From Pyropia yezoensis (taxonomy: Eukaryota; Rhodophyta; Bangiophyceae; Bangiales; Bangiaceae), in the NCBI GenBank assembly GCA_009829735.1, contig CM020620.1:3413447-3477446 (forward strand): a stretch of 64,000 bases of DNA, read 5' to 3'. The translations under genes were made by a program, and so were the position numbers. Positions 13,431 to 54,190 of the stretch are shown piece after piece; position 1 is the stretch's first letter; each line of letters begins with the position of its first letter. Under the pieces are notes generated by a model. It was not told the origin of the DNA. It was given only the letters and a program-made list of their open reading frames with translations, and did not search any database.

Positions 13431-15176
13431 CTAGTACCTACGGAAACGACTGTCGGGACGAGAAGACTCTTCCTCGTCCATGTCGTCTCGACCACGGACA
13501 CGAGAACCATCCTGGGTCCCCGTCCAGGCACGTCGCGCGGCCGCCTCGGCGTTACCCAACTCGGTACCAAGGTCCCCACGGATCCCGTTACGGTCAACCA
13601 GGTTCAATAGCCCTTTGTAGTCTGAGTTACTGGAGCCCCCTTCAGCACAAGTCCACTCGGCTACACGGGCCCCAAGGTTAACAGTCGCGTGAAGGGAAGC
13701 CGACAACAGGGGCCCGACATGAGCGTTCGCAAGGAGGTCCGCGGGACCCCCAAAGAAACTGCGTAGCCCAAGAACCGCCGTGGTAGTCAGGTTTCCCTCC
13801 AGGTCCATAAGTTCCGCGTCGGGCACGTCCCCATGGTCCAGAAGGTTAGCCACGTACACGGTACGACCCCCGGGAGGGTTGGAACGATGACCAGCTGACC
13901 CCGATGACCGAGCGCCCGGGAACCCAGAGGGACCTGCGGGAACCACCTCGTCCGACTGATCAGCGTTTTCGTCCTGGGCCCTGAGGATCTCACGCCCTTC
14001 CAGTACGTCCGATGAGTACGGTAGGTCCAGTGGGGCCAGGTCTTCGTCTACCAGGGCCGCCCATACCCCGTCCCGACTCTCGAACCGAACCCGAACGAAG
14101 GAACCGCGATCCTTGCGACGTTTCCCGGAAGCGAGGAGACGCGCACGGAGCCCCGCGGCGGAAACCACTTGGTCACTAAGGGTCAGAAGGGCGTCCAGGT
14201 CCCGCACGGCGGCCTCGTCCACGCCACCGGGACCCTGACAGATGGTACGGGTACCGACACGCTGGATCCACGTACGCAGGGGCCGAGAGAAGAGGCCCAG
14301 GTAACCTTCCCGACGGGCGAACTCAAGCAGGTACACAGCACAGTTGGTAGCCCATTCCGTTCGAAACACGTACCAGGCGAACGCGTCCGACGAACGAAGA
14401 AGTTCCGTGAAGTAACACTGGACCGCAGGAAGTTCCACAAGGGCCCCGTATGGTAGTTCCACGTTCTCGAACCAGTGCGGAACCCGAACGTAATGGAGCC
14501 CACGGGTAGTCGCGGAACAACTGGGGAACTCTTGTTGATGCCACCCGACCAGGAACCGACTATTGTCACGATGGTGCCGACTGAACACCAGGCTAGGTAG
14601 GGTCACTTGGTACCCGGGACGGTTCAGGTACGGGGGAGACCCGATCAGGTAACAGGGTGAAGGTGCGGCAGGTAGGGGCCCTTGGAGGAGTTCCGTGCGG
14701 ACCGTCTTGAACCGTTCGACGTACCCGACCTCGTCCGCGTGCCGTACAACCGTGATCGACAGGGAACGGTCCGCAAGGACAGGGATCCGAGCATCCGGCA
14801 TTACCGCCATCTGCTTGCGAAACGAGTTACCCGGACAGCTCCCGTCCACGGCTCGAAGGATCCCATGGGCCCGGGTACCAGTAACCCAACCTCGCGCCTC
14901 CTCCCGACGCCACGCCGTAACCGTCTCGGATCCGAAGTCCTCAGGAACCACGCCAACTATGGCCGCGTACGACTGGCCCGCCCCGGTTTCCTCTTGATCC
15001 ATTGGGAGAACGTCTGGCCCAGTAACGGGGCCACCTTGAGCATCGCGTACACCTTGCCCAGCTGGTACCCCGGACCCAGGAGCGGGTACACCTTGCCCGG
15101 CTCGGTCACCTTGTCGCTCAGGGGCCCCAGGGCCCGCGCCAGCAGGCGAACCCGCCGCGGCGCTGCCGGTAACCAT
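13431..15176 (-). CDS. Antisense protein of element C, 581 residues, unknown function
   Basis: A long open frame on the strand opposite to gag-pol, between pol and the 3' LTR. The frame is open from 15278, but the first ATG is at 15176 (the 15278 codon is GTG). Gly/Ala/Pro-rich start. The central part carries SPPYLNRPGY (about residue 195), LVGWHQQEFPSCSA and WFENVELPYG, which correspond in order to PPYLHEAD, LVTSAQLEFPQQSA and WWPQVEVPYG of the family B antisense protein. A helical region with RREGYLGLFSRPLR follows, then an acidic/basic tail (DDMDEEESSRP). No known domain, signal peptide or membrane helix was recognised. It stays open although gag and pol of the same element are broken, which hints at selection or a late loss of gag-pol. 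Confidence 0.75.
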   Translation of the reverse strand: MVTGSAAAGSPAGAGPGAPERQGDRAGQGVPAPGSGVPAGQGVRDAQGGPVTGPDVLPMDQEETGAGQSYAAIVGVVPEDFGSETVTAWRREEARGWVTGTRAHGILRAVDGSCPGNSFRKQMAVMPDARIPVLADRSLSITVVRHADEVGYVERFKTVRTELLQGPLPAAPSPCYLIGSPPYLNRPGYQVTLPSLVFSRHHRDNSRFLVGWHQQEFPSCSATTRGLHYVRVPHWFENVELPYGALVELPAVQCYFTELLRSSDAFAWYVFRTEWATNCAVYLLEFARREGYLGLFSRPLRTWIQRVGTRTICQGPGGVDEAAVRDLDALLTLSDQVVSAAGLRARLLASGKRRKDRGSFVRVRFESRDGVWAALVDEDLAPLDLPYSSDVLEGREILRAQDENADQSDEVVPAGPSGFPGARSSGSAGHRSNPPGGRTVYVANLLDHGDVPDAELMDLEGNLTTTAVLGLRSFFGGPADLLANAHVGPLLSASLHATVNLGARVAEWTCAEGGSSNSDYKGLLNLVDRNGIRGDLGTELGNAEAAARRAWTGTQDGSRVRGRDDMDEEESSRPDSRFRRY

Positions 15177-15744
15177 AGGGGCCAGGGTGGAGGGGAACGT
15201 GGGGGTACGGGTGATGGGGTACGGGGGCACGGAGACGGAGAAGGGGAACGAGGAAACGGGGGAGAACGAGGTGACCACGGGAAGCGCCGCGGGGACGATG
15301 GTACAATGGGACCCGGGTGCTGGGGACGAGGGAACCCGTGAGGGTGCTCTTATCCACTGGCCCCCTGCGTTCCAAATGGTACCAGGGCTGCGCCCACGTT
15401 CCGCTGGCCCCCGCCTGTGCCCCTACACCTCGTCACCCCCCCTGGCGTACGGCGCCACATGGGGAGGCGACGGGGAGGAGGAACGCAGGTGGGCGGCCGG
15501 CGCGGGCTGCGCCACACCCCCTTTGGTTCCCCTGCGCGTGGCCTGCACCTCTCCTGTACCCGCCCCTGGCCAGTCTGAACGGGTTCCCCTGGCACGAGAC
15601 ACTTGTCGGGGGGCCCCTGTTGACAGACACTGGCCCCACAACCCTTTCGTTGTGGCCCTGTTGTAACCCTGTCAGACGTTCCCCAGTCCCTTTCCTCGGT
15701 TTCCTTGGTGGCCGGCGGGACGCTCGGCCCTAGTGAGGGGGCCA

Positions 15745-16390
15745 TGTGGCGTTCTGAGCCCCTGGGACCGTTGGAACCCGGGAGACTGACTTGGGACCCG
15801 GCTGGCAGCGTTACGTGGAACCACGCGCTGGCCGAGGATCCCTGCATCGGTGGCCCGGGGCAGTGGCGACACGCCCGGTGCCCTGATTGGTCACCCGGAG
15901 CGGTGGACTTGCCGGGTTGGGGCATACTGACCTTCGGGTTATTTGTTTGATTTTTCGCATTTGTTTTCCTTGCGTGATTTCGTGTCTTTCCCCTTTTTCC
16001 CACTGGGTTTTTTTTTGGGGGATTGACATTTGTGTGTGGGGGGATTTCGCTTGCTTTTTGTGTGTTGGCCCGGTGAGCGGCCGGTGCCTTGCTGGCACTT
16101 GGCCCGCTGGGGGCGCCCTCTGGGGGCCTCGCTCAGGGCCCCTGGAGGGGCCAGGGGGGGAGGTTCTTGAGGGGTGCTCCGGGGTTCTCCCCGGGGCCAT
16201 CTTGTAAAATCAACAGTACTTTGGGTTCCTTCTCCCTCGGGCTTTTGTCCTGTTTACCTTTGCCTCTTATCGTGGCGGGCGAGTGGATCAGCAAGGGCTC
16301 TTACCTGTTCCTTCCTGGGCTTCGGACTGTGGTCTCTGAGTGTGTGGTTGTGGTTTCTGGGTCCGGGAATCTGGGTTCCATTACGCTACA
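15745..16390 (+). repeat. Element C 3' LTR
   Basis: 646 bases matching 6317-6959. A purine-rich run (GTGAGGGGGCCA) directly before it could serve as polypurine tract. The LTR ends exactly before the ATG of the next open frame. Confidence 0.93.
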
Positions 16391-18893: not shown

Positions 18894-18898
18894 GGTGC

Positions 18899-19175: not shown

Positions 19176-19644
19176 TGTAGCAAAAACCACAAGCACACAC
19201 GGCACCGAAGTTGGGGCGGTGTGCTAGGGCTGCCTTCCGTGTCGGGGGAACCGGAAGAAGTGCAAGTCGCACACACTCTGTCCCTGTTGTGTGGCAAACC
19301 CCCCACGGACAAACAAGAGGATGGTGTGTGGTCCAACAGTTTCTTGGTCGGGACGGGGACGCAGGGCCAAGCCCCGCTGTCCCTCCCCTTATCCCCCCAG
19401 GGTCCACTCAGAATCTCGCCACTCAGAATCTCCCACCCCAGCACCTGCCCACCGGGCCACACGAAAATTCAAGACGATAAATGCAGAAAACCCTCAAATC
19501 CAAGTTGGATTTACTACTAAGCTAACTATCCCAAACTTAGGGAATATGGACCCAAATGCAGGGGGAGGAACGGATCAGGCTAGTGGCCTGCCGCCCCTTG
19601 CATGGCACGTGTTGCCCCCCTACCTGGGGGTCAATACTGCCCCA
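19176..19644 (-). repeat. Element B1 3' LTR
   Basis: On the forward strand it starts TGTAGC (TGTGGC in the partner) and ends CCCCA (CCACA in the partner). It holds a 17-base palindrome at 19496-19512 with arms AAATCCAA and TTGGATTT. For the forward-strand antisense gene this LTR lies upstream and could supply its promoter. Confidence 0.93.
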
Positions 19645-19959: not shown

Positions 19960-19980
19960 CTCTCCCCAACTTGGGGAGAG
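19960..19980. promoter_or_regulatory. 21-base perfect palindrome just before the antisense gene start (B1)
   Basis: Arms CTCTCCCCAA and TTGGGGAGAG around a central C end two bases before the ATG at 19983. B2 keeps it unchanged at 30889-30909 with the same spacing. It could be a protein binding site or, in RNA, a hairpin that controls initiation. Confidence 0.6.
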
Positions 19981-19982
19981 CC

Positions 19983-21926
19983 ATGGCGACTCCGGGAGTG
20001 GAGACGGACTCTCTTGACGAGCGCATGGAGGACACCTCCTACGGTGCAGCACCCGCCGGGACTTCCGGCGGGGGCTCCGCGATCGCTCCGGGGGACGGGA
20101 CTCCCGCGTCACCCGGCTTTGGGTTGACGGCGGGGTCTCCCCCGGAGGCGGGACAAGTTGTCCCGCGTGAGGCCTTGGGGCGGTGGTTTTACCCCGCTTG
20201 GCCTCTCTATGAGGAGGGGCTGACTGTTCTTCGCTGTGGCCGACTTGGCGCAGCGATGGGCCGGGTATGGGACCGCCTACGGGAGAAGTATCCCCGTAGG
20301 GTCGGGTTCTCTGCCGGCTTCAGGACGGACCAGTTTGCCTTCCTGGACGATGAGGAGGTTGAGGACGTTCAGCGTGCCAAGGCCATGGTGGACCGCGGGG
20401 GAACTATCCCGGGTCCCGGCGACTTGCCGACCTTCACGTGGGACGCTGTGGCAACTCGCCCACCGTACCTCCACGAGGCCGATCCGCACACTCATCACTT
20501 TGATGTGCGGATGGAGAAAGACTTCCGGCGAGGTCCCTACTTGGTGACCTCGGCTCAACTTGAGTTTCCTCAACAGTCTGCTGCCAGTAAGGAGCAGTAC
20601 TATCCGAAGAAGCCCGAGTGGTGGCCTCAAGTTGAGGTCCCGTACGGGTTCCCGGCGTTGTTGCCACGGTTGCTTGACCACTTCGGCTCCGTCATGTTGA
20701 CGGCTGCCCCTGATCACCTGGTGTGGGCCATGTTGGCCACCCAGTGGCTCCTCGAGGTCATGTCGACCTGGGTGTCCTGTGTTCAGCGGCGGGGGATGCT
20801 CTGGCATCTCCCCCTCCGGCTCCTCCAAGGTTTGGAACAGCTCACCCCTCAGCTAGTTGCTGAGGGGTGCTCATCAGGACAACTCACTCTACTTGAGGAG
20901 ATGCTCCGGCTCCATGAGTTTATCGAGTGGGAGAGCATTGAGCACAAGTTGCGCCGCCCCACTCGTGGGCCCAAGGACGATGGCGCACTTCGCCAGTTCG
21001 TGTGGGTCGCTCGTGAACTTCACGACGGCCGTGTGGTCCTACGAGAGGGGTTGGGCATCGGGGACTACCCGTATGCCCCGGGGGTGGATCGCCACACTGC
21101 GCCACCCCCGGACAAGCCCATAGTTATGGCCGTGCCGTCCTATGATGACCACATGACTCAACCCACTGCGGGGGCCCCAAGTCGGGGTCGCAGTTACACC
21201 CGGGTACCGCCACCTCGGCGGGCCCCTCCGCTTCCTCCTGTTCCTTTCCAACCTCACGGGAACATCCCGATCAGCGTGGCCGTGGAGTCTTCCACCCCGG
21301 TGTCCCCCAACTTGGGGGCCACCCTCCTGACGGTATACCCCAAATTGGTGTTGCCGCCCACGCCTCTAACCTCAGAGATGATGATCACCACGTTGGTGCG
21401 CACCATTTCCTGGTTGGCCGCGTCGACCGCAACCCTACAGAGTTCCGAGACTCCTCAACTTGAGGAGCGCGTTCGTACTGCAGTGGCGACCGCGAGTTGC
21501 GAGTCGGTGGCGGAGTTTATGACAGCCGAGTTGGCTCGCATTGGGGCTATTATGCCCCAGCCAGCCCCACTTGGGCGTGGCAAACGTCGCGCGAGCCGGG
21601 CATACTCGCCTCCTCGCCGTCGTCGCCGACACTCGCGGCGCTCTCCTTCCGTATCGGAAGACGAGTTGTCTTACTCCGTCTCGGAGTCCTCTACCCCGTC
21701 GGAGACGGTGTCTGTCCAGCGTCTGCGTCGCAAACTTGCGCGCAAGACCAGGCAGAAGAGTGGCCACGGTCGGCGCCACTTGCGCGACCGTGAGGGACGC
21801 GACGGTTCCGACTTGGAGCCGCCGCCCCCTCCAACAAGTGGAGACCGTTATCGGCATGGGTCTCGCCGCTCGCCTCCACGTGAGGGCGAGGGCCGTGGAG
21901 TGGGAGAGTCTAGCATGCGTGCCTAG
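19983..21926 (+). CDS. Antisense protein of element B1, 647 residues, unknown function
   Basis: The start is the ATG at 19983 in a GCCATGG context; the frame is open back to 19812 but only with a TTG there. Acidic Gly/Ser/Pro-rich N-terminus (MATPGVETDSLDERMED), then a globular part with FRTDQFAFLDDEEVED, PPYLHEAD, LEFPQQSA, WWPQVEVPYG, a Trp-rich helical segment and VQRRGMLWHLP. Two further helical stretches follow (EERVRTAVATASCESVAEF), and the end is Arg/Ser-rich and very basic, suggesting nuclear or RNA/DNA contact. The central motifs match the element C antisense protein in order. The frame is intact in both B1 and B2 while B1 pol is broken. It converges on pol with 111 bases between stops. 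Confidence 0.82.
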   Translation: MATPGVETDSLDERMEDTSYGAAPAGTSGGGSAIAPGDGTPASPGFGLTAGSPPEAGQVVPREALGRWFYPAWPLYEEGLTVLRCGRLGAAMGRVWDRLREKYPRRVGFSAGFRTDQFAFLDDEEVEDVQRAKAMVDRGGTIPGPGDLPTFTWDAVATRPPYLHEADPHTHHFDVRMEKDFRRGPYLVTSAQLEFPQQSAASKEQYYPKKPEWWPQVEVPYGFPALLPRLLDHFGSVMLTAAPDHLVWAMLATQWLLEVMSTWVSCVQRRGMLWHLPLRLLQGLEQLTPQLVAEGCSSGQLTLLEEMLRLHEFIEWESIEHKLRRPTRGPKDDGALRQFVWVARELHDGRVVLREGLGIGDYPYAPGVDRHTAPPPDKPIVMAVPSYDDHMTQPTAGAPSRGRSYTRVPPPRRAPPLPPVPFQPHGNIPISVAVESSTPVSPNLGATLLTVYPKLVLPPTPLTSEMMITTLVRTISWLAASTATLQSSETPQLEERVRTAVATASCESVAEFMTAELARIGAIMPQPAPLGRGKRRASRAYSPPRRRRRHSRRSPSVSEDELSYSVSESSTPSETVSVQRLRRKLARKTRQKSGHGRRHLRDREGRDGSDLEPPPPPTSGDRYRHGSRRSPPREGEGRGVGESSMRA

Positions 21927-22037
21927 TTGGCAGCTGCCTTTGTTGTGAGAGTGTGAGGGTTAGGGCTGTAGTTAAAAGCCACTCTGCGTACCACTTCGAC
22001 TTGAAGCACTCTCTTGGCACTGTTGCTCGGCCTTCCC
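21927..22037. terminator. Convergent spacer with inverted repeats (B1)
   Basis: Holds CCCTCA and TGAGGG arms around CGT at about 22034-22048 and an imperfect CTTC...GAAG pair near 21997. Both the antisense gene and pol end at its borders, so it may hold transcript ends for both strands. Confidence 0.35.
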
Positions 22038-25000
22038 TCACGTTGAGGGAGGGCTGTTAGGGTCTATCTCATTCCGGGCACAGTACGCCCGGACCTTCTC
22101 AGCGGGAAGGTCCTCCACATACTCCCACGTATCATCCTTGGCTTTGTAGCCAAACCAACGCACCCTCAACATGAGGCGGTCAGTGTCTTCATCCCATCCG
22201 TGGTCGATGAACTTATCGAACACGTACTCCTGCGGGCCCTGCTTGGCCGCAGGCAGTGAGGGGAGGCGCCACGACTCCAACGCACGTGCCCAAGCTGGGT
22301 CGCCTGCAGGCGGTGGTGCAACTTTGACCACGTCCTGTCCGTTCACTGTGCGGACCCCATCGTCACTTTCGATGATGAAGCGCCGCCCATCAGTACGAAG
22401 GACCTGTTACGGTCCCTTCGTCTGGAATACCAGCTTACCCCCAGTTGGGGTGTGCGAGTGTACCAGCACCCAGTCACCCTGCTCGGGGACATGTTTAGCA
22501 TTGCGCACCTTTTTGTCAAAGGTACGCTTGTAGCGCTTTTGTGCTTTGTCCATCTCAGCCCTGACTTTAGGGATGAGGTTTTCAAGCCTAGCGGCGAACT
22601 CCGCCTTACTCTCAGTAGGAGTAGGCGTACTGCCACCATCCTCCCTAGTTGGGAGCGACCGCCGCACGGCAATAGACCGCACGCTACGGGGAGTCACAAA
22701 AGCGAGGGGTACTTCCCCTGTAGATGAGTGAACCTGCGAATTGTAGGCAGTAGTAAGGATAGAAATGTATTGGTCCCACGTCTTCACGTGCTCACTCACA
22801 TAGTGGCGCAGCTGCCTAACAATAGTTCTGTTGAAGCGCTCCACCTGCCCATTAGTTTGTGGGTGGTAGGGGGTGGCATAGTTTGCCTTAACCCCCAACA
22901 TATCCAGCACTCCCTGAAACAGTACAGACGCAAATTGCGGTCCATTGTCCGATAGTGTACTATCTGGGATGCCATACGCGGCAACCCAGTGATCTAGGAA
23001 GGCTGACACGACCGACATGGCCGTGATCTCTGCCAGTGGGATCGCTCGCGTAAGTTTCGTGAAGCGGTCACAGATGACCAGGAGGTACTGGTTGCCCTCC
23101 TCGGTCACGGGCAGTGGCCCAAGGATGTCCATCGCCAACGCGGCGAAGGGCTCCTTGGCCGGGAACAATAGCATAGCCGTACTAGGCCGCCGTTCCATCA
23201 GACGATTCTGTGCACAACTTGTGCAGGCAGCCACCCAACTGTAGATGTCCACCACCATGGACGGCCAGTAGTACCTGGTCCTCAGGGTCTGGTACAGTTT
23301 ACTAGACCCCAGGTGTCCACCCGTGGGGCCGTTGTGCTCCCTCTCAAGGATACTGTCCTTGAGGGATGCGGGGACGACAAGTTGTTCGGTCCCCTGGAAT
23401 ACCCCCCTTCTCATGAGGAGGCCATCGTCTCCCAGAAAGAAGCGCGTCTCAACCACCGTATCCAGTATATCCCTCTGCGACTTGCAGAAGGGATCCTCGG
23501 CCTGGGCCTTCACCACCTCGTCCAGGGACAGGGGCAAGTACTTCTTGTTCCCTGGCGCCTCGGGGTTCAACGCCTGACCCGAGCGCGTGACTACCCCCAC
23601 GATGGGGATGTCCTCATCGACTGGGTTAGTGTCCAGCCCCTCGGTAGGTACCCGAGAGAGGCCGTCGGCAAGGGCATGTTGCCTGCCAGGTCGGTACTCA
23701 ATGTCAAAGTGGAAGGGTGCCAGTCGCACCCTCCACCGGTTGAGACGAGTGTTCGTACAGTCCGTCTTAAAGATGAACTGCAACGCGCGGTGGTCACAGC
23801 GGATGAGGAACTTCTCACCCCCCAGGTAGTGACGAAGTGACGTCACCGCCCACACCACTGCGAGTCCTTCCAACTCGGTGACTCCGTAGTTCTTCTCGGC
23901 CGAGTTCAGCCCCTTACTAAAGTATCCCACCGGCAAGTACTCCTTGTCCGGCTGCTGCTGAAGCAACACACAACCAAGTTGGTCGTAGCTAGCGTCCACA
24001 TCCAGGATGTAGTGGCCTCCCAACCTGGGAATAGCCAAGATGGGGGGCTTCAGCAGAAGGTCCCGAAGAGTCTCAAAGGATTCCTGCTCCACCCGACTTG
24101 GGGGAGGCAGGTTCTTCGGTAGCGTTGAGCTCACTAGCTCATTCAACGGCTTCGCCACCTTGGCGAAGCCCTTGGTGAAACGTCGGTACACGTTACACAT
24201 CCCGAGGAAGCTCCTCATCTGGGTCTGGGTCCGGGGGTACTGAGCCTTACGTATGGCCCTCAAGTTCTTCTCGTTAACACTGAGACGCCCCGGACGGACA
24301 ACATGTCCCAAGTACTCCACCTCTTGAGTGAAGAGGTGGCACTTACTCGCCTTCAGTGACACACCGGCGTCAGCAAGTAGCTTGAACACCTGGCCAAGAT
24401 GGCCAATGTGTTCCTCCGGACTTCGGGAGAACACAATGATATCGTCTAGGTACACAAGACAGATCTGCCACCGTACTCCGGCCAGAATCATGTCCATAGC
24501 GCGCTGGAAAGTTGCCGGCGCGTTACACAGACCAAACGGTAGGCGTTTGCACTGGTAGGTACCACAGTGACAGGTAAAGGTAGTTTTATGCCTGTCCTCC
24601 GGGGCAATGGGAATTTACCAGTACCCCGCGTTACAGTCCAGGGTAGAGAACACGTTTGCCTCCCCCAGGGAGTCCAGACAGTCATCCATCCTAGGTAGGG
24701 GATAACTGTCCTTCACCGTGCTCTCGTTGAGCTTACGGTAGTCGATACAAAACCGGGGGGTCCCATCAACTTTGGGGACGATAACCACCGGACTCGCCCA
24801 CTCGGCGTTGCTGGCCTCGATCACATCGAGGGCCTCCATGCGAGCAACTTGCTCCTTAACGAGGGCCCTTGAAAGAGGTCCTCCCCTATACAGTTGTTGG
24901 CGTATAGGGGGTACACCGGGCTTCAACTCGATCCGGTGTTGGGTGGCTCTCATGAGTCCCAATTGACCATCCCACAGCTTGTGATATTGGTCCAAGAGGC

Positions 25001-26021
25001 GTTCAACTTGAACCCTCAACCGGGGGGGAACACCCTCCATGTTCACATGGAGCCGAGGAGAGGTGGCCGACTTGGCTTGATGCTTCTCCTTTCCGGACTT
25101 CGGGTCGCTCCTTGCGCCCGCGTTGAGGGTGACCGCTACTACCGGTCCCTCATGTTGGTCGATATAGCCGAACTTGGCTCCCGACTTGAAGTACTTGGGC
25201 GTCGGACTCAGGTTCATCACCTGGATCCTCCACGGGACTCCGGCTTTGGAGTCCATCGTGCCAAGGGCAACATGCACTTGGTGCTTGCGAGCAAGACGGG
25301 GGTTAGGGTGCACCAACTCGTTCCCCGAAAAATCAGTTACAACGTCAACGTGCGCCACCGAGTTGGGGGGCAACGTGACTTTGCGGGCTAAACGCAGGGT
25401 AGCAGTAAACCCTTCCCTCACAGAGCAAACAGGCTTCGACTGTGAGACTGTCACAGGAGCCACAGACTTTCCCTTACCAAGGATGGGGATAGTCTCCCCA
25501 TTCATCATCTTGACCCAGTACTCAGGGCCACAAATCAAAGGCACTTGTGTAACAACATAAGGGGTACCCAGAAGCAGGGGTACCGATATATTCTCAACTA
25601 CGCCATAGGTCACGTCGACCTCATGGGTCCCCAACCTAGTTGGTAGGGTCACGGCACCAACGATGGGAAGTACCCCACCATTGATGTCAATCATATGGTC
25701 AGCTTTGGACCTCCAGCGTTGGAGCTTCACCTCCTTTGGTAATAGCGACTTGCGTATCAAGGAGGCTCCTGACCCGGTATCAAGTACGATACGGGTACTG
25801 CATGCACGGCCGGGGGCAAGTTGCACCCGTCCAGCCACCTGGAAGTTCTCACCCGTCAGCACCGCGATGACCCGACGTGGGTTTACGTTTTTGGGGAGTC
25901 CTACCCGAGGTGGGCGGACTCCCTTAGGTCGCCGCAGTATCCGGCACGGTTGGTTCGTCCTCCTGGCCCACTTGGCCGAGGCTGCCGTTGTGAGCTTCGG
26001 ACGACCAGCCCCAACGGTCAT
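22038..26021 (-). pseudogene. pol: Element B1 pol: protease to chromodomain-like end, two TAA codons
   Basis: The first ATG at 26021 overlaps the gag stop as ATGA. Order: protease with IVLDTGSGASLIR, RT with FCIDYRKLN, PLPRMDD and YLDDIIVFS, RNase H with LDVDASYDQLGC and IRCDHRALQF, and integrase zinc finger GGHLGSSKLYQTLR...CTSCAQ. The integrase core has MDILGPLPV, LSDNGPQFAS and YHPQTNGQVERFN. The C-terminal chromodomain-like segment has LRVRWFGYKAKDDTWEYVED. A TAA at 24617-24615 replaces the CAA (Gln) found in B2, inside RT, and a TAA at 22409-22407 replaces a TAC (Tyr). Otherwise the frame is open to 22038. RT, RNase H and integrase would not be made without suppression. Confidence 0.92.
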
Positions 26022-27964: not shown

Positions 27965-28063
27965 GTTGGCTGACGACCCGTATGACACGGTCCAAGACCA
28001 CCGTTCCTCTGAGACAGAGGGCCCCCTACACCCGGGTGCACCCGGAGGTAAAGTTTACCTCTG

Positions 28064-28081
28064 TCCCCTGCTGCTCCACCA
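28064..28081 (-). promoter_or_regulatory. Element B1 primer binding site
   Basis: Read on the reverse strand it is TGGTGGAGCAGCAGGGGA, two bases inside the 5' LTR edge and identical to the element E site. Confidence 0.85.
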
Positions 28082-28083
28082 AA

Positions 28084-41026: not shown

Positions 41027-41031
41027 CAGGG

Positions 41032-41878: not shown

Positions 41879-41880
41879 TG

Positions 41881-41892
41881 TGGTAGCTTCAG
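41881..41892 (+). promoter_or_regulatory. Candidate primer binding site of element A
   Basis: TGGTAGCTTCAG begins two bases after the LTR and starts with TGG as needed to pair with a tRNA CCA end. The tRNA is not identified. Confidence 0.5.
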
Positions 41893-42111
41893 ATAGTTTG
41901 GCTTTTCTACCTGGCGGTGACTTGCGATTCCGTTTTTGATTTGGCTCTCCCTGCGATTGTGCAGTCGTGTTGCCCCCTACGTTCGGCTTGCCACGGGCAT
42001 TGTAATACGAACGTAGCGGGTTCCACGAATCACACCGAACGAACAATTTCCTGACACAACCCTTGTGGTTTTTTTTTAACGGAATTTTTCTTTTGGTCAA
42101 CCGATTGTTGA

Positions 42112-42897
42112 ATCCCAGTGAGATTCACATCAGATTCGGAATACTCTTCCTCAGCACTGGCGGCCGGCCCGACATCCTCGGCGGCCTCGGCGCGCGATAC
42201 CGGGTCCGCGTCCCGTGGCACCCCCCCGGTACGCACACCCTCGACGATCCGCGCACCCCCGACGGTCCGCGCACCCCCGACGACCCGTGGCGCCTTCACG
42301 GCCCACGGTCCGTCGGCACGCGGCCCCCCGTCGGCACGCGGCCCCCCGTCGGCACGCGGCTCCCCGCAGGCACACGCCCGCCCGAGGGCACACAACCCCC
42401 CGGCGGGCGCCCACTCGATTCCTACCCCGGCGGTCCCAGTCCGCCTCGCCTCGGCGGGCCGGGCCGCACCCAAGCCCCCCCTCTCGGGCAAGGGCAAGGG
42501 CCCTGCCACCAAGGACACGGCAGCCCGCGTCAACCGTCGCCTGTTACTGCCCCCCCAAGAATCGGGGCGCCGTTACACCGCTCCGCCGCCACCGGTGATT
42601 GGTCACATCAAGCCAACCACCGCGCGCGCGGTTGAGCAGCGTGAGCAACGCCGAATTGCCAAGAGCCACCGTGGGGCGCAACGGAAATTCCTTTGCAATC
42701 CGTGCGGTGTGCGGTGCAACAGCCTCACTGTGCTGCGTGATCACCGCGGATCCCGTCGCCACCGATACGTAATTAACCGCCCGGACACCCTTCCCCGTTG
42801 CGAACCCTGCGGTCGCGAATTTGAGTCGGTGGAACATTTCGAGCGGCACACACGTGGCAAGGATCATCACCGCACGCTGGCGCGCCGCACCGATTGA
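42112..42897 (+). CDS. Extra 5' ORF of element A with two matrin/U1-type zinc fingers
   Basis: Open for about 260 codons between LTR and gag. A Ser/Ala/Pro/Arg-rich N-terminus with repeated (A/G)PPSARG blocks is followed by a basic helix-like stretch (EQREQRRIAKSHRGAQRKF) and two zinc fingers of the form C-x2-C-x12-H-x5-H, starting CNPCGVRC (about 42703) and CEPCGREF (about 42806). This spacing is typical of matrin/U1-type fingers that bind RNA or DNA. There is no in-frame ATG: the nearest upstream codon is a stop at 42109-42111. A pyrimidine-rich tract with CCCAG at 42114-42118 resembles a splice acceptor, so the start may come from a spliced leader or a non-ATG codon. Confidence 0.65.
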   Translation: MPVRFTSDSEYSSSALAAGPTSSAASARDTGSASRGTPPVRTPSTIRAPPTVRAPPTTRGAFTAHGPSARGPPSARGPPSARGSPQAHARPRAHNPPAGAHSIPTPAVPVRLASAGRAAPKPPLSGKGKGPATKDTAARVNRRLLLPPQESGRRYTAPPPPVIGHIKPTTARAVEQREQRRIAKSHRGAQRKFLCNPCGVRCNSLTVLRDHRGSRRHRYVINRPDTLPRCEPCGREFESVEHFERHTRGKDHHRTLARRTD

Positions 42898-43243
42898 CAC
42901 CTGTTGACACGCCCCTGGATCTGGCCTAGGAGCCCGATTTTCCCCCATTGATCCCCCCGCTTGGAAATCCGACACGACCCGACTCGGGCCTGTGCACGGA
43001 CGCTTCTGAATATTCCGTTTGTGTGATTTCAACCGAATTTCTTGTGCTTCTCGAAGTAGTGCTGTACATCATTTGGAACGTTGCAGCAACTAGCGCAGCA
43101 CTTATCCAAATCGTGTACACCACTACTGCTGCAGACAAACTCCTATCCCACATCTCCGAGATCTTCCTTGGGGTCCTCCCCAAGCAAGTCTTGTGAAATC
43201 TGGGTTGTAAGTTTGTTTGCCTCGGGCTTGAACCCAAGACACC

Positions 43244-44113
43244 ATGGATGCACCAATCCCAGGGGGTGTCAACCCGGCCAATCCGGGCTCGGGCTCGAAC
43301 GCACCGACCATGGAAGCCTGGACCCAGCTTACAGCGTTCGTCGCGCAAATGAGCGAACAACTCGAGGCTCATAAGATGGAACTAGCCGACGCTAAGCAGC
43401 AACTGTCCGAAGCCAAGGCCAGGGCCACTACTAGTGGCATGAAATCCGCGAGGCCGAACAAACCCGTGGCTTTCTCCGGTAAACCTGGGACGGTTGAAGC
43501 GTGGTGCTCGCATATGGATTTCTATGTGCGACTGAGTGACCCCGACGATGCGTGCAGTATTGCTTGCACCTTCCTCGACGGCGAAGCGTTCGACTGGTGG
43601 AAGGTCTACAGTCAGACTACAGCTGTCCCGAACTGGGAATCCTTCCGTTCTGCTCTAATTCGCCGCTTCAGTCCACTGAACAAGACACAAGCGGCACGAG
43701 ACAAGCTGCACTCGTGGCGCCAAATCAAAGACGTCGGAACGTTCAACAGGACGTTTCTGAGCGTCCTCTTGGACATCCCTGACATCACGGAAGCCGAGAA
43801 GATTGACCGCTACACCCGAGGCTTGAAGCGGGACATCTGGCAGGCTCTTTGTCTCAAGACCTACTCGGATCTTGAATCTGTCATGACTGACGCTCTGCGC
43901 GTGGAGGCTGCCAAGGCTGGTGCCTCGACGCACCTCGGCGGCACATCTGCGAGGCCATCCACGACGGGTGTCATTCCCATGGAAATCTCCAGCATCAAAG
44001 TCGAGAAACTCACGCCTGAAGAGCGTCAGCGCTGCATGCGTGAAGGCTTCTGCCTCCGCTGCCGTGAGAAAGGACATATGGCCAAGGACTGCCCAAAAGG
44101 CCAGCGGAACTGA
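43244..44113 (+). CDS. gag: Element A Gag, 289 residues
   Basis: ATG in ACCATGG. A helical N-terminus with a coiled-coil-like stretch (EQLEAHKMELADAKQQLSEA) is followed by the retrotransposon gag core (FSGKPGTVEAWCSHMDFYV, FDWWKVYSQ, FRSALIRRFSPLN, DIPDITEAEKIDRYTRGL) and a CCHC knuckle CLRCREKGHMAKDC just before the stop. Length and order are usual for chromovirus Gag. It is intact, and pol follows in the -1 frame. Confidence 0.95.
   Translation: MDAPIPGGVNPANPGSGSNAPTMEAWTQLTAFVAQMSEQLEAHKMELADAKQQLSEAKARATTSGMKSARPNKPVAFSGKPGTVEAWCSHMDFYVRLSDPDDACSIACTFLDGEAFDWWKVYSQTTAVPNWESFRSALIRRFSPLNKTQAARDKLHSWRQIKDVGTFNRTFLSVLLDIPDITEAEKIDRYTRGLKRDIWQALCLKTYSDLESVMTDALRVEAAKAGASTHLGGTSARPSTTGVIPMEISSIKVEKLTPEERQRCMREGFCLRCREKGHMAKDCPKGQRN
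44092..44098 (+). promoter_or_regulatory. -1 frameshift site CCCAAAA in element A
   Basis: Phased C CCA AAA in the gag frame, directly after the zinc-knuckle Cys and four codons before the gag stop. The -1 frame is open from here through pol. The heptamer fits the rule but is less common than GGGAAAC. Confidence 0.6.
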
Positions 44114-47100
44114 AGCAGCAACCGTCATCAAAACCGGTGCCAGACGCTTCTTCGGTTCCTGAAAACATGTCGTCACCATTTGAAGGCCCGCGTCTCGGGC
44201 TTCTGCTTTCTACTGCCTCTGTCAATGGACATCTTGTAAAGGTGCTGTTTGACGACGGATCTCCCATTAACGTCGTATCAAGGCGCCTCGTGAATACCCT
44301 GAATGTGACCACGAAAGAAACGGACTTCGCGGCTAACATGCCCGATAGTCGCTCCCACGTCCTCGCAGAGACCATTGAACCCTTAGAGATTCACATCGGC
44401 CCATACCAAGAACGCCTTCGGTTTGCTGTATGCGACCTAAGTGCGTACGACATCATCCTCGGAAAGAAATGGCGTGACGACAAGGACGCCAAAATCAACA
44501 ACAAGAAGAACAAGATCTCTTTCAAGTTTAACCAAAAGAACATCTCCATCACTGCCTCCCTCAAGAAACCCCATGGCCTGATTAGTAGGCAACGCCTCGC
44601 CAAGGACCTTATTCAAAAAGTTCCTGTCTTCGCCATTTACCTGCAATCCGAAGATCCTTCCAGCACCTTTGACATCAATGCAATCAAAATGGGAGAAGCT
44701 GAAGACAAGAATGACGTCCAAGAGATTCTCAACGAGTACGCCGACGTCTTCCCGGAAGAGCTTCCCGATGGACTTCCTCCTGAACGCAGTCACAAGTTTA
44801 GAGTCAAGCTTACGGAGGACGCTCAACCACGTCGCAGTGGCATTTATCGCCTATCTGAATGGGAACTCGATGAACTCAAGACACAACTTGCAACCCTCAT
44901 ACGAAAGGGGTTCATCCAACCAAGTGCCTCACCGTGGGGCTCTTCTGTACTCTTTGCCGCAAAGAAGGACGGTGGCTGGCGAATGTGCATCGATTATCGA
45001 GCATTGAACAAAGCCACTATCAAGAACGCATATCCTTTACCAAGAATTGACGACATCTTCGACCAACTGCGAAAGGCCAAGTACTTCACGAAGATCGACC
45101 TCCGATCAGGTTACCACCAGATCCGGCTTGACCCTGATACTATCCCACTGACGGCGTTCCGAACAAAATACGGGTTCTACGAATTTACCGTGCTACCCTT
45201 TGGGCTAACAAATGCCCCCGCGGTCTTCATGAACCTAATGAATGACGTCTTCCGACCCTATCTCTACGAGATTATCTGCGTCTACCTCGACGACATCCTG
45301 GTCTACAGTGAAGCTTACGAAGATCATCTAAAGCACCTAAGGCAAGCCCTGGACAAGCTGCGAGAGCATAAGCTCTACGCCAAACTCAGCAAATGCCAAT
45401 TTGCGCGAACAACTGTATACTACCTAGGCCATGTCATTTCCAACGAAGGCTTCTCTATGGAGGACTACAAGGTCCAAGCCATTCGATCATGGGCAACGCC
45501 ACAGAGCAAAAAAGATGTGCAATCTTTCATCGGCATGGTCAACTTCTATCGTCGATTTATTAAGGGAATGGCATCCGTGGCTGCACCCCTCACAAGGCTT
45601 ACTGGAAACGTTGACTTCGAATGGAACTCTGACGCCCAGAAGGCTTTTGAGCAACTACAAACCCTGACGACAAGTGCACAAGTACTGAGGCCATTCGACA
45701 AGAGGTACTCAATCTTCGTCTCCACAGATGCCAGTGGGTATGCTGTTGGCGCTGTCCTTGACCAAGATGACGGAAAAGGACGACGCCCAGTGGCCTACTT
45801 CTCATTGACGCTGAACATCCACGAACAGCGCTACAGTATCCGTGAGCGCGAACTGCTCGCAGTTGTACAAGCCATTCGACACTGGCGCTGCTACCTCCAT
45901 GGAAGGTCGTTCGAGGTGCACACCGACCATGAGTCCCTAAGGTACTTGAAAACCCAAGAGAAGCTCAACGACCGCCAAGTCAAGTGGCTAGAGCTGTTGG
46001 AGCAATTCGATTTCAAGATCATCCCCATCAAGGGCACTTCCAACCCCGTAGCTGATGCTCTTTCAAGGCAACCACAAGACGCCCCCGATAAGCACGCTCC
46101 CAATCAAGATCTCCTTAGTCGCGTGCTAACCAAGACCATCGAAAGCCTACCCAAGAAAACTGAAATCAACAACCTCATGACCATAAGCCAAAGTGATCAA
46201 GACCTTGCCACCCTAGACCAAGAGTACAACGCGGATCCCGAGTTTGCCGACCTAGTCAAAGACCCGGTATCTCCCTACCGGCTTCACATGAGGTTGTTGA
46301 AACGAGGTGACCGTACGTGCATCCCCGTTGGTACTCTACGCCAAAGACTACTCCATGACTACCACGACATCCCAAGCCAAGGACATATGGGAGTTAAGAA
46401 AACCACCAACGCTATTGCTTCCAAATACTACTGGAAGACATTACGGAAGGACATCCAAAGATACCTACAATCATGTGATTTGTGCCAGCGGAACAAAGCT
46501 GGCACCCATTCACCTCTGGGTCACCTCAAACCACTAGATCCACCGAACCAACGATGGGCAAGTGTCTCCATGGACTTTATCACCCCTCTTCCACTGACCC
46601 AAAGGGGCCACAATGGCATTTACGTCATAGTGGACAGACTGTCGAAGATGATTCGACTAGCACCAATGAAGCCCGACTGTACTGCACCAGTCGTAGCGCA
46701 ACTCTACCATGATCACGTCTACCGTCATCACGGTCTACCATCCGACGTCGTCTGCGACCGAGACCGTATCTTCTTCTCCAACTTCTGGCAGTCGCTCACC
46801 GAAATTCTCAAGGTCAAGATCAAGGCATCTTCAGCCTATCATCCCCAGACGGACGGACAAACCGAGATCATGAACAAGAAGATTGAAGAAATCCTGCGAA
46901 ACTTCGTGAACCATCATCAGGGTGATTGGGACCTCTTCCTTGTTGCTGCAGAAGTAGCTTACAACCGGTCACCCAATGCGGTCACGACGTACTCCCCATT
47001 CTTCCTGAACTACGGCTTTGAACCAAGGACAGTACCTGTCGACATCGTCGAGAGCAAGGAATCGAAACTACCAGCAGTCTCAGATTGGCTAAGCAGTCTG

Positions 47101-47628
47101 CAAAAAGCTCAGGAGACTGCCATTACCGCTATCAAGAAGGCCAATGAGACGCGCTCGGCGTACGCTAACCGTCGACGCCGACCATGTACGATCGCTGTCG
47201 ACGACCTCGTGCTCCTGAGCACCAAGAACCTTATGCCGGACGCCTTCCAGGGCGCTCGCAAGTTGATGTCCAAGTTTTCGGGACCATACCGAGTCACTGA
47301 AAACATCAATGATGTTACGTTCCGTCTGGATCTGCCTCAAGCAGTCCTTGATCGAAAGGTGCACAACGCCTTTCACGCCAGTCTACTTAAGCCGTACAAC
47401 GCTGATCCGTATGGTCGACTTCCTCCCGCTCCAGCTCCGGTAGCATTTCCGGACGGATCGGTTGAGTACGAAGTGGACTCCATTATTCGGTCACGAAAAC
47501 GCCGTGGACGACTGCAGTACCTGGTCAAGTGGAAAGGCTGCGATGTCAGTGAGAACACCTGGCTAACCACGCAAGACCTCGACAACGCACCTGAGGTTCT
47601 CGACGCCTTCCTTCGACGCACGTCCTAA
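44099..47628 (+). CDS. pol: Element A Pol: protease, RT, RNase H, integrase, chromodomain
   Basis: Open from the slippery site; the first ATG is at 44167 (44137 is a GTG). Domains, numbered from 44137: protease with VLFDDGSPINVVS at 37-49, where the usual D-T/S-G reads D-D-G; RT with CIDYRALNK, PLPRIDD and YLDD at 383-386; and RNase H (STDASGYAVGAVL, HTDHESLRYL). The integrase zinc finger has HDIPSQGHMGVKKT...CDLCQRNK. The integrase core has SMDFITPLP near 812, VCDRDRIFFS and YHPQTDGQTEIMN. A chromodomain lies at about 1110-1160 (EVDSIIRSRKRRG, YLVKWKGC, ENTWLT). No stop or frameshift. The chromodomain probably steers integration by binding chromatin. Confidence 0.96.
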
Positions 47629-47638
47629 GGGGGGGAGG
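47627..47638 (+). promoter_or_regulatory. Polypurine tract of element A
   Basis: AAGGGGGGGAGG abuts the TG of the 3' LTR, the standard primer for plus-strand DNA. It begins within the pol stop codon. Confidence 0.85.
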
Positions 47639-48485
47639 TGTAAGGATTTCCCCCCTAATCCCATGCCTAATACTTAAGGGATAATATCTGGGACCTCTCC
47701 TTACAGATCCTGCCGAATCAACTCCTGGCAACATGGATCAACTCCTTGTATTGTGGGGCATGACGCGGTGTACCTTCCAGACGCAAGATGAGTCAGCCGC
47801 TGTCTCACGGTGTCTGCCGGCCGCACGACAGCAGCCATCGATAGCCCATCATGGCCTGTCGAAAGGCGCCACCGTCAGCACCCATGACGAGCCACATCTG
47901 CCACAGCTGGCGAGTCCGTTAAAATGTCCTCGCTGCAGCATTGCAGCGATGTGACTGGCTAGCCGGCTGGCCGATTCGGCCGACTCGATCGAATCGTGCT
48001 TACACGCCTCTCGGACCTTCGGGCCGACTGGCGTCTGGAGCCGGCTGGGGCGGCGCCCTAGACGCCGCACGCCGGACCCCTTCGTTTGGGGCAAACTGGG
48101 GCTGCACTCCTTTAGTGCGCACGCCCGCCCATGCTTTGTTCTGAGAGCCATGCTTTGTTTTTGGGCCGTTTTGTGCCTACCGGTGGAGCGACGGGGAAAC
48201 GCATGCTTTGGGGCACCTCGGGTGCCCCGACGCGAGTATATAGTGCGTGAGTGTCTGCGCCACCGGGGGAGACCGGAAGGGCAACCACAGACACAGACCA
48301 AAGACGACCTTCACCCTTTGAACCCTCTCGATCACCACCGACGTCGCGCCGTCCTCTTCCCCAGACCCACCACCGTCACCACCTCCATCCTCTTCCCCGC
48401 ACCCTGTCGCCCTATTGGCTGGCACGGGTCGCTGACACCATCACGAGTACGTTGAGGGCTGCCCAAGTGTGGGTGGTTCCTCACA
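47639..48485 (+). repeat. Element A 3' LTR
   Basis: 847 bases, five substitutions from the 5' LTR and no indel seen. Confidence 0.96.
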
Positions 48486-50874: not shown

Positions 50875-51237
50875 TGTAGCACAATAGGAATCCGTCGCAC
50901 GTCCACTCTCAGGGAACACTCACCAAGGGGGATCGGCACCAACGTCACCGGGAGGCCAAGGTTGCTGTCCTTGGAGCGCAAGCCACGGGACCAAGATGGG
51001 AGCCCAAATGGGAGGGGTTTGTTGTTCTGCCTTGGCCGGCGGTGGATTCGCCGCCGGCCCCCTCGTTATAAACCCTCGGAGACACTACTAACTACCCTCC
51101 ACCCCAAGATGCAAGTCCCTCTGGTCATACGTAACTTGTAGATACCGTGACCAGTACGGACTCTCAAATTGAAAGCCAAGGATTAGAAGTAGCCCCCCTT
51201 GCATTAGGGTCACAATACGGCCAACCATATTGCTAAA
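50875..51237 (-). repeat. Element D1 3' LTR
   Basis: Forward strand TGTAGC...GCTAAA, where the terminal CA has become AA. The C-run TATCCCCCCCTTA next to it (51238-51250) is the polypurine tract of the reverse strand. Confidence 0.93.
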
Positions 51238-51820: not shown

Positions 51821-54190
51821 ATGTCGGACCCCCAGGTACCCGGGGGCGAGGACGACCTCCTGCTTGAGGAGGAGGAGGAGGTGATGGTGGACGACGTTCC
51901 CGTCTCTGCCACCGCCGCCGAGTGTTTCTTGGTGAGCTCGTCCAAAGACGAGGGCGACCGGGTGACCGTTCGCGTGGCTCCGGACGGTGCTCCGAGCGGT
52001 TTGTCGTCCGTGTGCAGCGGCACGACGGCTCCGTCGGGTGGCGGGCAACCGCGGGTAGCTGCTGCGTCTACCCCTACTCCTCCGGCGGCCCGGATGGCTC
52101 CTGTCGCCGGTGCCGGCGCGGCTCAACCTCAAGACGGCGTCGCCGGCGTGTCGGGCGGTTATGGCGGCACCCCGACCGGGACGGCGGGTTAAGACGGCGC
52201 GGGTGCCCGCCCGGGTGGTTCATCCGCGGCTGCGGGTGACGGGTCTACCCCTGCTGCCCCCGAGGTGCCCCCGTCGGGCTCGGGTGGCGGCGTTGCTCTG
52301 CCCGCGGTGCCGCGGGCGTCTGGTGGTCAAGGTGGATCTACACCGATGGCAGTGGACTCCGGTAGTTACTCCGGGCGGGCGCCCGCCCTTCTTCTTCCTC
52401 CTCGGCCCCGTGCACCTCCGGCACCGGTCCATCTGCCGGTGGGGCTTCCCCCGGCGCCCCCGATTCTTCCTGGTCCTGCCCGGGTTGCCCCGTTGGGTGG
52501 CGGCGTCGCCGTGGCGGCGGGTCAACCCGCCATGTCGATGTCCGACTTGGTGGCTCGGGTTCGCGGCCTGACTGTGCAAGAGTCAATGGAGTCCGATGGG
52601 CGGATGCGGGTGGACTTCCACCTGCCCCATCCCCGTGGAGAGTCCTCCCGGCGCGTCAAGGTGGACCCGAGTTGGGAGCGGGAGTTGGTGCGGCTGGTCA
52701 ACCAGCCGAACGCGGTGCGGGTGGAACACCATTGGATCCTGAGTCAGCCGGACGACCGGCATGCGCAGCTCTGGCGCACCCGGGTGGGACGGGGTGAGGT
52801 CTACCTCGACCCCGCCTTCGGGGTATGCGACCTGATTGCTCCCGCGTTGCCGCGAGAGGTTGACTTCCCGGCTAGTGCACGGGGGATTGCGGCGGCGGCG
52901 GAGCCGGTTGCGTTTGGGGAGACGGTGGGCGATACCGGTCGGTATCCCGACCTTGATTATTACCCGGGGGTATCCCAGTATCTGACGTTGACGGCTCCGT
53001 GCCCGCCCATGGCGGGGCTGAAGTCGGCGTCGAGCTGGCGACGCAACCATGGTGTCATGGCGGATGCGTTCCGCACCGATATAAAGTGTGCGTTGCACAC
53101 CGGTAACGGTCGCGCGCCGGTATACACTCCCGTGCGCCCGCCTCTGTGGCAGGAAGGGTGGGAGCCCGCCCCGGCTTTCCGGTTTGACACCGGCTCCCGT
53201 CCCCGATACTTCGGAAGTGTGTTGGCCTCCCGGCCTGTCCACCCGCTGCAGGGGACCTTCACCCTCGAGGTTACCCTCGGGCAGGCTTCCTCCTTCTTGC
53301 TGTCCGTCCGCCGGCAGGGGCGCCTGTTTCATCTTCCGACGGGTGTCCGTCGGCACATCGCGCAGTTGGGCGTGGACCTGATAGCCGCCAAGACCGGGTT
53401 GGCCCGGGAGTTCGAGGCCCTGCTGGCTGTTCGCGATGCCGTGAACTGGGCTGGGGTGTTGGCCCTTCCCCCGTACCGGGACCCGCAGGCTGGGGCTTCC
53501 CCCTTGCCTCGTCACTCGTTGCGTATCCGGCGTACTCAGCCGGGTGAGCCCAATTGCCATGGGTGGGCGTCCACCGAGGCTGTTGCTGACCTGGGTATTC
53601 CCATGGTTATCCATGACCCTCTTCAGGTCCTTGCCCCGTGGTTCGGTAACCCGATACCGGCGGCGGTTGGCCGTCATCCCCGAGAGTGGGGCTCTGCGGG
53701 TGGGGAGCGTGAGGTGTCCCGTCGTCGGGCGGAGCCCCGCCGGGGTTACGGTGGAGCCCCTTCGGTGGGGTCCTACCGGGCCTCATATCAGGCGCCACCG
53801 GCTCCGGTGGTGGCCGAGTCGGCTCCTCTGGCTCCTCTGGCTGCGCCAGTGTCCCCTCCCGCCCCTGTCATACAAGACGGGAGTCCCCGTCTCTGGTATG
53901 AGGGCGTTGACGCCCTTGTTGCCCGCGCAATGCGGGAGAGTCTCTCTGTTAGCTGGGGGGATATCCCCCCAGGTGCTGCGCTGGTTGGGTCAGCGCGTTG
54001 CTTCGGTGGCGTGCTTGACCACCTCCAGAGAGCTCTGGAGGACGTGGAGGCTGGCCGCAGCACCCTCGTTCAGCTATGCACCGAGGTAACTCGGGTGATT
54101 GACCGTCGTGAGATTGCCGACCGGTGGAGCACGGAGATATATGCGCTTACGCGTGAGTGGCCTCCCTCGGGCAGTGGGTCTACCCACTGA
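51821..54190 (+). pseudogene. Antisense gene of element D1, about 790 codons, one in-frame TAA
   Basis: ATG at 51821 begins MSDPQVPGGEDDLLLEEEEE, an acidic start like the other antisense proteins. A TAA at 52190-52192 interrupts the frame. It continues in frame from there for 665 codons to the stop at 54190. The second part has a Pro/Val-rich linker, SMSDLVARVRGLTVQ, a globular region with YLDPAFGVCDLI, YTPVRPPLWQEGW and SVRRQGRLFHLP (compare VQRRGMLWHLP in B), an Arg-rich stretch, and two helical segments (LQRALEDVEAGRSTLVQLC). Similarity to B and C is visible but weaker than between B and C. Function unknown. D2 is cut before this gene, so the TAA cannot be checked there. Confidence 0.7.

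What the first reader, a model, noticed from the sequence alone, without database searches (positions are those of the whole stretch)
13431..54190. A conserved antisense gene downstream of pol in three Ty3/Gypsy families
B (19983-21926 and 30912-32855), C (15176-13431) and D (51821-54190) each carry a 580-790 codon frame on the opposite strand to gag-pol, always between pol and the 3' LTR. The B and C proteins share PPYL, (Q/L)EFP..SA, VE(V/L)PYG and RR.G.L in the same order and spacing. D shares the last motif and a similar layout (acidic start, globular core, basic or helical end). Antisense ORFs are known from some plant Ty3 elements (for example Grande and RIRE2), but I do not recognise this protein family. 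It may regulate retrotransposition, since every full-length element RNA is complementary to this mRNA.
Basis: partly seen in the sequence, partly recalled or inferred. Interest (0 to 1): 0.88.

Follow-up and report, generated by a model that had tools for sequence, protein, structure and literature searches.

The report
Antisense accessory genes in seaweed retrotransposons
Three related families of jumping genes in a nori seaweed carry an extra protein-coding gene that runs backwards between their main gene and their end repeat; selection has kept it readable, so it probably helps or regulates the element, much like backward genes known from some flowering-plant elements.

Summary
Host: Neopyropia/Pyropia yezoensis, by scaffold sizes. 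Each element is Ty3/Gypsy and has an ATG frame (647, 647, 581; D 614 codons) antisense to pol, between pol and the 3' LTR; a fourth Ty3 element, E, has no room for one. The proteins are homologous: B-C E=2e-12, B-D E=4e-7, neither score reached by 999 shuffles; C-D only through joint profiles. Selection: B1/B2 dN/dS 0.07 (pol 0.053); C subfamilies 0.23 (pol about 0.07). Pol lies antisense downstream in 57 of 60 fetched copies. Relatives occur in Pyropia vietnamensis. No significant domain match, none to TRP28 (PF04195) of plant Retand. Antisense genes in this place (aORF-3R) are known from Grande, RIRE2, Retand and fungal Boty; I found no red-algal case in six paper searches. So: a new variant of a known kind. 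Most likely a soluble regulator that favours the element; that step is inference.

The parts
19983..21926 (+). B1 antisense ORF (aORF), 647 codons
   Evidence: dN/dS 0.07 against B2
30912..32855 (+). B2 antisense ORF, 647 codons
   Evidence: 40 scored matches at 100% (rounded) in the genome, itself included
13431..15176 (-). C antisense ORF, 581 codons from the first ATG (relatives suggest that a start further in may be used)
   Evidence: 75 scored places in the genome, itself included
52193..54190 (+). D antisense ORF, open part in this copy; longest ATG frame 52346-54190; an in-frame stop at 52190-52192 cuts it from the upstream part
   Evidence: other copies have open frames of 554-990 codons
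6314..6959 (+). C 5' LTR; target duplication ATGCC read by eye from the flanks
15741..16390 (+). C 3' LTR, 99% identical to its 5' LTR
7732..12944 (+). C gag-pol (protease, RT, RNase H, integrase; two in-frame stops in this copy)
19176..19641 (-). B1 3' LTR; target duplication GCAAC read by eye; B1 sits inside a D-type LTR
22041..28054 (-). B1 gag-pol, with in-frame stops and a sub-threshold chromodomain match at the end
28077..28552 (-). B1 5' LTR
30102..30570 (-). B2 3' LTR
32970..36758 (-). B2 pol, up to an assembly gap (N) at 36759-37258
50875..51235 (-). D 3' LTR; target duplication GCTCC read by eye
54658..59709 (-). D gag-pol; zinc-binding and core domains of integrase are missing from this copy
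60178..60538 (-). D 5' LTR
19960..19980 (+). 21-nt perfect dyad just upstream of the B1 aORF start (same at 30889 in B2); candidate operator or hairpin; not shared by C or D
   Evidence: in 30 of 30 fetched B copies; arms of 10 or more in 1 of 300 shuffles
41030..48485 (+). E element, a Ty3 comparison without room for an antisense gene there (pol stop about 8 bases before the 3' LTR)

Best explanation
A clade of Ty3/Gypsy elements in Bangiales red algae (families B, C and D of this window) carries an inherited accessory gene, antisense to gag-pol between pol and the 3' LTR. Shown: it is protein-coding, homologous among the three families (C to D only through B), under purifying selection in B and C, and in the same antisense place in nearly all B and C copies inspected. 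Inferred: it is transcribed from its own promoter in the LTR-proximal stretch, the mRNA runs convergent to the element RNA, and it makes a soluble, probably nuclear protein that acts in trans on element DNA, RNA or chromatin to favour the element, as an anti-silencing or transcriptional factor. Coding, homology and selection: about 0.95. The pro-element regulatory mechanism: about 0.45.
For: B1/B2 aORF: 55 synonymous and 12 replacement changes, dN/dS 0.07 (Fisher p=7e-23); mismatches by codon position 8/5/54; pol 0.053. C subfamilies: median dN/dS 0.226 over 56 pairs of stop-free copies at dS about 1.1; pol 0.066-0.077 on three pairs at dS 0.94-0.97. Place: own LTR upstream in 28 of 30 and pol antisense downstream in 27 of 30 fetched C loci; both in 30 of 30 B loci (these 60 are the best-scored of 75 and 40 and include the window's own C and B2). 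D aORF core and D pol end stand as in the window at six other places (tables compared by me). No stop in the matched stretch: 17 of 30 C, 150 of 150 B 230-residue cores, 107 of 116 D 351-residue cores. Relatives: C 38-68% over the alignment, D 54-94% over the core, with named Pyropia vietnamensis proteins in both. No membrane segment: highest 19-residue hydropathy 1.41 in 11 proteins. B has a basic, SR-like tail. The C aORF changes faster than pol, as VANC does against VANA (PMC5735166, passages). Between two C1-C2 pairs the LTR-aORF stretch is mostly 69-89% identical, the aORF-pol gap 43-53%: room for an antisense promoter.
Against: No transcript, localisation or binding data. No significant domain match. 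The one structure obtained (D) is too poor to use (mean pLDDT 28.6). No VANC-like motif arrays in six non-coding regions. Basic clusters are clear in B, short in C, P0007 and P0008, absent from the other 7 of 11 proteins, so nuclear location is not shown. LTR-aORF conservation grades out of a 90-100% identical LTR and could be recombination. Within C subfamilies median dN/dS is 0.31-0.42, range 0.19-1.26, probably partly decay after insertion. The B estimate rests on one pair of lineages. No dN/dS could be made for D.
Confidence: 0.55

Rival explanations
1. Self-limiting copy-number control: the antisense protein inhibits the element's own particles or expression, as Ty1 p22 does.
For: [quoted passage not shown] PMC4599808 and PMC8458377, abstract starts in the listing). 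HTLV HBZ represses sense expression (recalled; HTLV antisense genes are named in PMC11963269).
Against: No relation to the elements' gag or pol (hhalign probability at most 1% for six proteins against three profiles), so it is no p22-type fragment. B is present in at least 150 near-identical places, all 150 scored cores open, which suits a helper better than a brake; this is an evolutionary argument, not a test. An inhibitor should be lost by faster copies.
Confidence: 0.2
2. The antisense RNA is what matters: it pairs with the element RNA (dsRNA, small RNA, interference) and the ORF is incidental.
For: Convergent layout; PMC7264820 (parts 1-2 of 3 read) proposes this beside a protein role.
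Against: Codon-level selection: dN/dS 0.07 and 0.23, 54 of 67 changes at third positions in B. An RNA-only role does not keep a frame across 38-68% protein identity.
Confidence: 0.1
3. A structural or cycle accessory factor (nuclear import of the preintegration complex, RNA packaging or integration targeting) that happens to be encoded antisense.
For: Soluble protein with a basic tail in B; PMC7264820 discusses PIC import for plant aORFs.
Against: E lives without it, though E has its own extra zinc-finger ORF. A factor needed in the particle would more simply be translated from the sense RNA.
Confidence: 0.25
4. A chance open frame, or an old capture of a host gene that is now neutral.
For: GC-rich DNA makes long frames; no known domain.
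Against: 0 of 300 shuffles for each of three intervals; dN/dS; three diverged families share it; 57 of 60 fetched copies lie beside pol.
Confidence: 0.02

Closest known systems
Antisense aORF-3R genes, many with the TRP28 domain (PF04195), in Retand-lineage elements (Grande gene23, RIRE2, Retand)
   Same: Ty3/Gypsy element; gene between pol and 3' LTR, antisense to gag-pol, conserved across species, function unknown; Grande's product is nuclear and has its own promoter (PMC7264820, PMC11963269)
   Different: Red alga rather than flowering plant; no PF04195 match in 19 aORF proteins scanned; sub-threshold chromodomain signals in B and D, whereas Retand is non-chromoviral; in the C interval only a short 18-base, 3.6-copy repeat inside the ORF, where about half of Retand elements have arrays
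Other aORF-3R: Boty (Botrytis), PvRetro13 (Phaseolus, SMC domain)
   Same: Antisense gene in the same place (PMC7264820)
   Different: Their sequences were not compared here; no SMC match in Pfam scans
HTLV-1 HBZ / HTLV-2 APH-2
   Same: Antisense gene at the 3' end of a retroelement with LTRs
   Different: HBZ is a bZIP protein (recalled); no bZIP match here; different host
VANC anti-silencing proteins of VANDAL transposons (Arabidopsis)
   Same: Element-coded accessory protein that evolves faster than the transposition enzyme (PMC5735166 passages, PMC10398659 abstract)
   Different: DNA transposon; DUF1985 protein; motif arrays in the targets, not seen here
Ty1 p22 restriction factor
   Same: Second protein that can regulate the element in trans
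   Different: [quoted passage not shown] here unrelated to gag

Membership tests
aORF-3R (antisense ORF between pol and 3' LTR) | Antisense to gag-pol and between pol and 3' LTR | tested here: met
   antisense pol downstream in 57 of 60 fetched copies (27 of 30 C, 30 of 30 B)
aORF-3R (antisense ORF between pol and 3' LTR) | Present in most copies, with protein conservation | tested here: inconclusive
   many copies and conservation shown, but elements without the gene were not counted, so 'most' is untested
aORF-3R (antisense ORF between pol and 3' LTR) | Antisense transcription from its own promoter (shown for Grande) | not testable with these tools
   no RNA data
Retand lineage / TRP28 protein | PF04195 domain in the antisense protein | tested here: not met
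   no match in 11 + 9 scans, 19 distinct aORF proteins (HMMER's filters drop most matches above E 0.1); the whole-genome search is uninformative because no control rang
Retand lineage / TRP28 protein | Non-chromovirus element | tested here: inconclusive
   Chromo matches below Pfam's cut-off: B1 4e-5, B2 7e-4, D 0.03, none in two C pieces
Retand lineage / TRP28 protein | RT phylogeny within Retand | not tested
   no reference RT sequences at hand
Ty1 p22-type gag-derived inhibitor | Derived from gag | tested here: not met
   hhalign against gag of B, C, D and E: probability at most 0.8%
VANC-type anti-silencing protein | DUF1985 domain | tested here: not met
   no such Pfam match
VANC-type anti-silencing protein | Motif arrays in non-coding element DNA | tested here: not met
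   no enriched 9-mer in six regions (lowest P 0.105); one 7-mer at P=0.04 in the D aORF-pol gap
VANC-type anti-silencing protein | Induces loss of silent chromatin marks | not testable with these tools
   needs experiment
env-like aORF | Sense orientation and transmembrane segment | tested here: not met
   antisense; highest hydropathy 1.41 in 11 proteins
HBZ-like antisense retroviral protein | bZIP domain (recalled) | tested here: not met
   no such Pfam match

The most novel reading that the evidence does not exclude
A whole clade of red-algal Ty3 elements, separate from plant Retand, has carried since its common ancestor a sequence-specific anti-silencing or trans-activating protein of a new fold, encoded antisense. 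If the protein is unrelated to TRP28, antisense accessory genes arose at least twice at this same place, which would suggest that an antisense gene behind the 3' LTR is a favoured design for a regulator whose expression is coupled inversely to element transcription.
Probability: 0.3. Interest if true: 0.78.

Novelty: new variant of a known kind. Interest (0 to 1): 0.6.

Why it matters
Antisense accessory genes of LTR retrotransposons are described mostly from flowering plants and their function is open (PMC7264820, PMC11963269). A family under measured purifying selection, with many near-identical copies, diverged subfamilies and relatives in a second species, makes the question testable: is the antisense gene transcribed, does it bind its own element, and does it help or restrain it? 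It may also bear on why LTR elements predominate among the repeats (48% of the genome) of P. yezoensis (PMC7423979, passage).

Tried and rejected
Gag origin of the aORF: rejected. Known domains: no significant match. Pfam gave none for 11 proteins of A1 and one chance-level DUF6214 match (E 0.014) in 1 of 9 of A4; NCBIfam none and PHROGs one at E 0.41, with 5 proteins given to each; PDB sequences E 0.14 at best. Relatives in viral contigs (B, C and the C alignment) and in prokaryote genomes (C alignment): none; the D alignment could not be searched. VANC-like motif arrays: none. Structure: the D model is unusable, so no fold search was run; the C job was never accepted. PF04195 in the own genome: no match, but no control rang. 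Direct C-D similarity: not significant alone; C-D gave no reportable BLAST match and the script stopped there. The first table of loci was made without turning minus-strand loci round and was replaced. Paper searches for red-algal or other algal antisense retrotransposon genes listed nothing of that kind that I recognised; the library lacks most subscription journals.
Full report
OBSERVATION. The window is C3:3413447-3477446 of a 107.5 Mb genome in 11 contigs. Its three large contigs (43.6, 34.3 and 29.4 Mb) match the three scaffolds of Pyropia (Neopyropia) yezoensis in PMC7423979 (passages). Self-comparison delimits four LTR elements: C (+, LTRs 6314-6959 and 15741-16390, 99% identical), B1 (-, 19169-19641 and 28077-28549, 98%), E (+, 41030-41878 and 47637-48485, 99%) and D (-, 50875-51235 and 60178-60538, 99%), plus B2, whose 5' end is lost at an assembly gap. 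For C, B1 and D I read 5-bp target duplications by eye from the printed flanks. Pol domains identify all as Ty3/Gypsy. None of 300 dinucleotide shuffles for each of the B1, C and D intervals gave an ATG frame as long. E has no room for such a gene: its pol stop codon ends about 8 bases before the 3' LTR match.

HOMOLOGY. BLASTP: B-C E=2e-12 over 199 residues, B-D E=4e-7 over 87, C-D E=0.012. None of 999 window-shuffled versions reached the B-C or B-D score (best 28.5 and 29.6 bits against 56.6 and 39.3); C-D gave no reportable match in that test. hhalign: B-C probability 97%, E 3e-11; B-D 81%, 1.2e-5; C-D 4%, 0.01. HMMs of one group against all 253 window frames of 100 or more codons: the C profile finds B at 4e-19 and D only at 0.09; the B profile finds C at 7e-10 and D at 0.011; the D profile finds B at 3e-5 and does not list C at E up to 1; the joint C+B profile finds D at 1e-4 and the joint D+B profile finds C at 2.5e-5. 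With reversed decoys added (280 targets of 150 or more codons) the best decoy had E from 0.036 to 1 in the five searches. So D belongs through B; the direct C-D link is not significant. In RT identity B-C is closest too (61-63%), but C-D (55%) is slightly above B-D (51-53%), which the aORF order does not follow; E is 35-37% to each. One inherited gene in the B/C/D clade is the simplest reading.

SELECTION. B1/B2 aORF: 647 codons, 55 synonymous and 12 replacement changes, dS 0.120, dN 0.008, ratio 0.07. The other two plus frames give 3.0 and 5.6; the minus frames give 1.5, 0.18 and 3.6, the 0.18 frame being interrupted by stops (619 of 646 codons usable). The pol control gives 0.053. Differences fall 8/5/54 by codon position (third-position excess p=2.5e-15). 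The non-coding flanks differ by 5.1% (LTR-aORF) and 0.9% (114-base aORF-pol gap), less than the aORF's synonymous sites, which I cannot explain fully. The other B copies scored are near-identical to B1 or B2, so B is one comparison of two lineages. For C, 75 places were scored in the genome at 39-100% identity. Of the 30 best, which were fetched, 17 are stop-free over the matched stretch; 15 of these are near full length and were used for dN/dS. Between subfamilies C1 and C2 (56 pairs) the median is 0.226 at dS 1.13; within C1 (28 pairs) 0.42, range 0.36-1.26; within C2 (21 pairs) 0.31, range 0.19-0.67. Pol (last 290-292 codons) in three C1-C2 pairs gives 0.066-0.077 at dS 0.94-0.97. The C aORF is thus constrained but accumulates replacement changes about three times as readily as pol. 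For D no DNA of other copies could be fetched, so no ratio was made.

GENOMIC CONTEXT. In oriented loci an own-family LTR lies upstream of the aORF in 28 of 30 C and 30 of 30 B copies, and pol lies antisense downstream in 27 of 30 and 30 of 30. L001 and L031 are the window's own C and B2. The C exceptions for pol are L006, L027 and L030; those for the LTR are L015 and L030. For D, 116 core matches were scored, 107 of them without a stop by my count; at six places besides the window, core and pol end occur in the same arrangement (my comparison). B cores: 150 scored, all stop-free. These counts cover only the best-scored candidates of larger first looks (1984 for C, 2233 for D, 3225 for B), so they favour intact copies and are lower bounds. 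In two C1-C2 pairs the LTR is 90-100% identical, the stretch from LTR to aORF falls from 88-89% to 69-74% and then to about 50% just before the start, and the aORF-pol gap is 43-53%: either a conserved antisense promoter or a recombination gradient. B has a 21-nt perfect dyad next to the start codon in 30 of 30 fetched copies (arms of 10 or more in 1 of 300 shuffles); the copies are near-identical, so this is common descent, and C has no comparable dyad; D has a different 20-nt palindrome further upstream.

RELATIVES. Database searches gave 1 relative for B (96%), 6 for C (42-66% over the core) and 8 for D (54-94% over the core). Named ones (1 for C, 6 for D) are hypothetical proteins of Pyropia vietnamensis (Bangiales). 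In each search only the 8000 candidates with most shared words were scored. No domain library or PDB sequence matched significantly. Proteins are soluble by hydropathy (11 proteins); B has a basic, serine-arginine-rich tail.

MECHANISM. Shown: protein-coding, inherited, selected, antisense. Inferred: transcription from its own promoter, a regulatory role, help to the element. The argument for help is evolutionary: the source lineages of B and C kept the frame, and the near-identical B copies all have open cores. Against: no transcript, no usable structure, no target motif arrays, no general nuclear signal.

KNOWN. [quoted passage not shown] 97% of the clusters of recently active Retand elements have them with the TRP28 domain (PMC11963269, abstract, passages and Discussion). 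The present proteins show no match to that domain. My paper searches listed no red-algal case. In Ectocarpus an accessory gene on the opposite strand is known in a Sola1 DNA transposon (PMC12477816, passages). I therefore call it a new variant of a known kind.

Noticed in passing
42112-42894 (+), in element E: Sense ORF between the 5' LTR and gag of E with C2H2-type zinc fingers (zf-met 3e-7, zf-C2H2_jaz 5e-6): another accessory ORF, in an element without the antisense gene.
   Followed up: no
49784-50884 (+): Transposase with Plant_tran (1e-54) and DDE_Tnp_4 matches, PIF/Harbinger type by recall, next to the D 3' LTR.
   Followed up: no
55177: The window's D copy lacks most of the integrase; 39 of 39 other scored matches end at this edge, so the loss looks private.
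   Followed up: partly
15438-19175 and 60264-64000: 3.7 kb inverted duplication at 98.6% identity holding a C LTR, a 318-codon ORF without Pfam match (16340-17293) and a D LTR piece.
   Followed up: partly
18901-30104: Nested insertions: B1 inside the LTR of a second D-type copy, and B2 inside that copy's gag region.
   Followed up: partly
21927-22040 and 32856-32969: The 114-base gap between the convergent stops of aORF and pol differs at 1 of 114 bases between B1 and B2, less than any other part compared.
   Followed up: no
2613-5081 (+): 823-codon frame with internal repeats (self-matches at offsets such as 37 and 109 bases) and no Pfam match, interrupted by a run of N.
   Followed up: no
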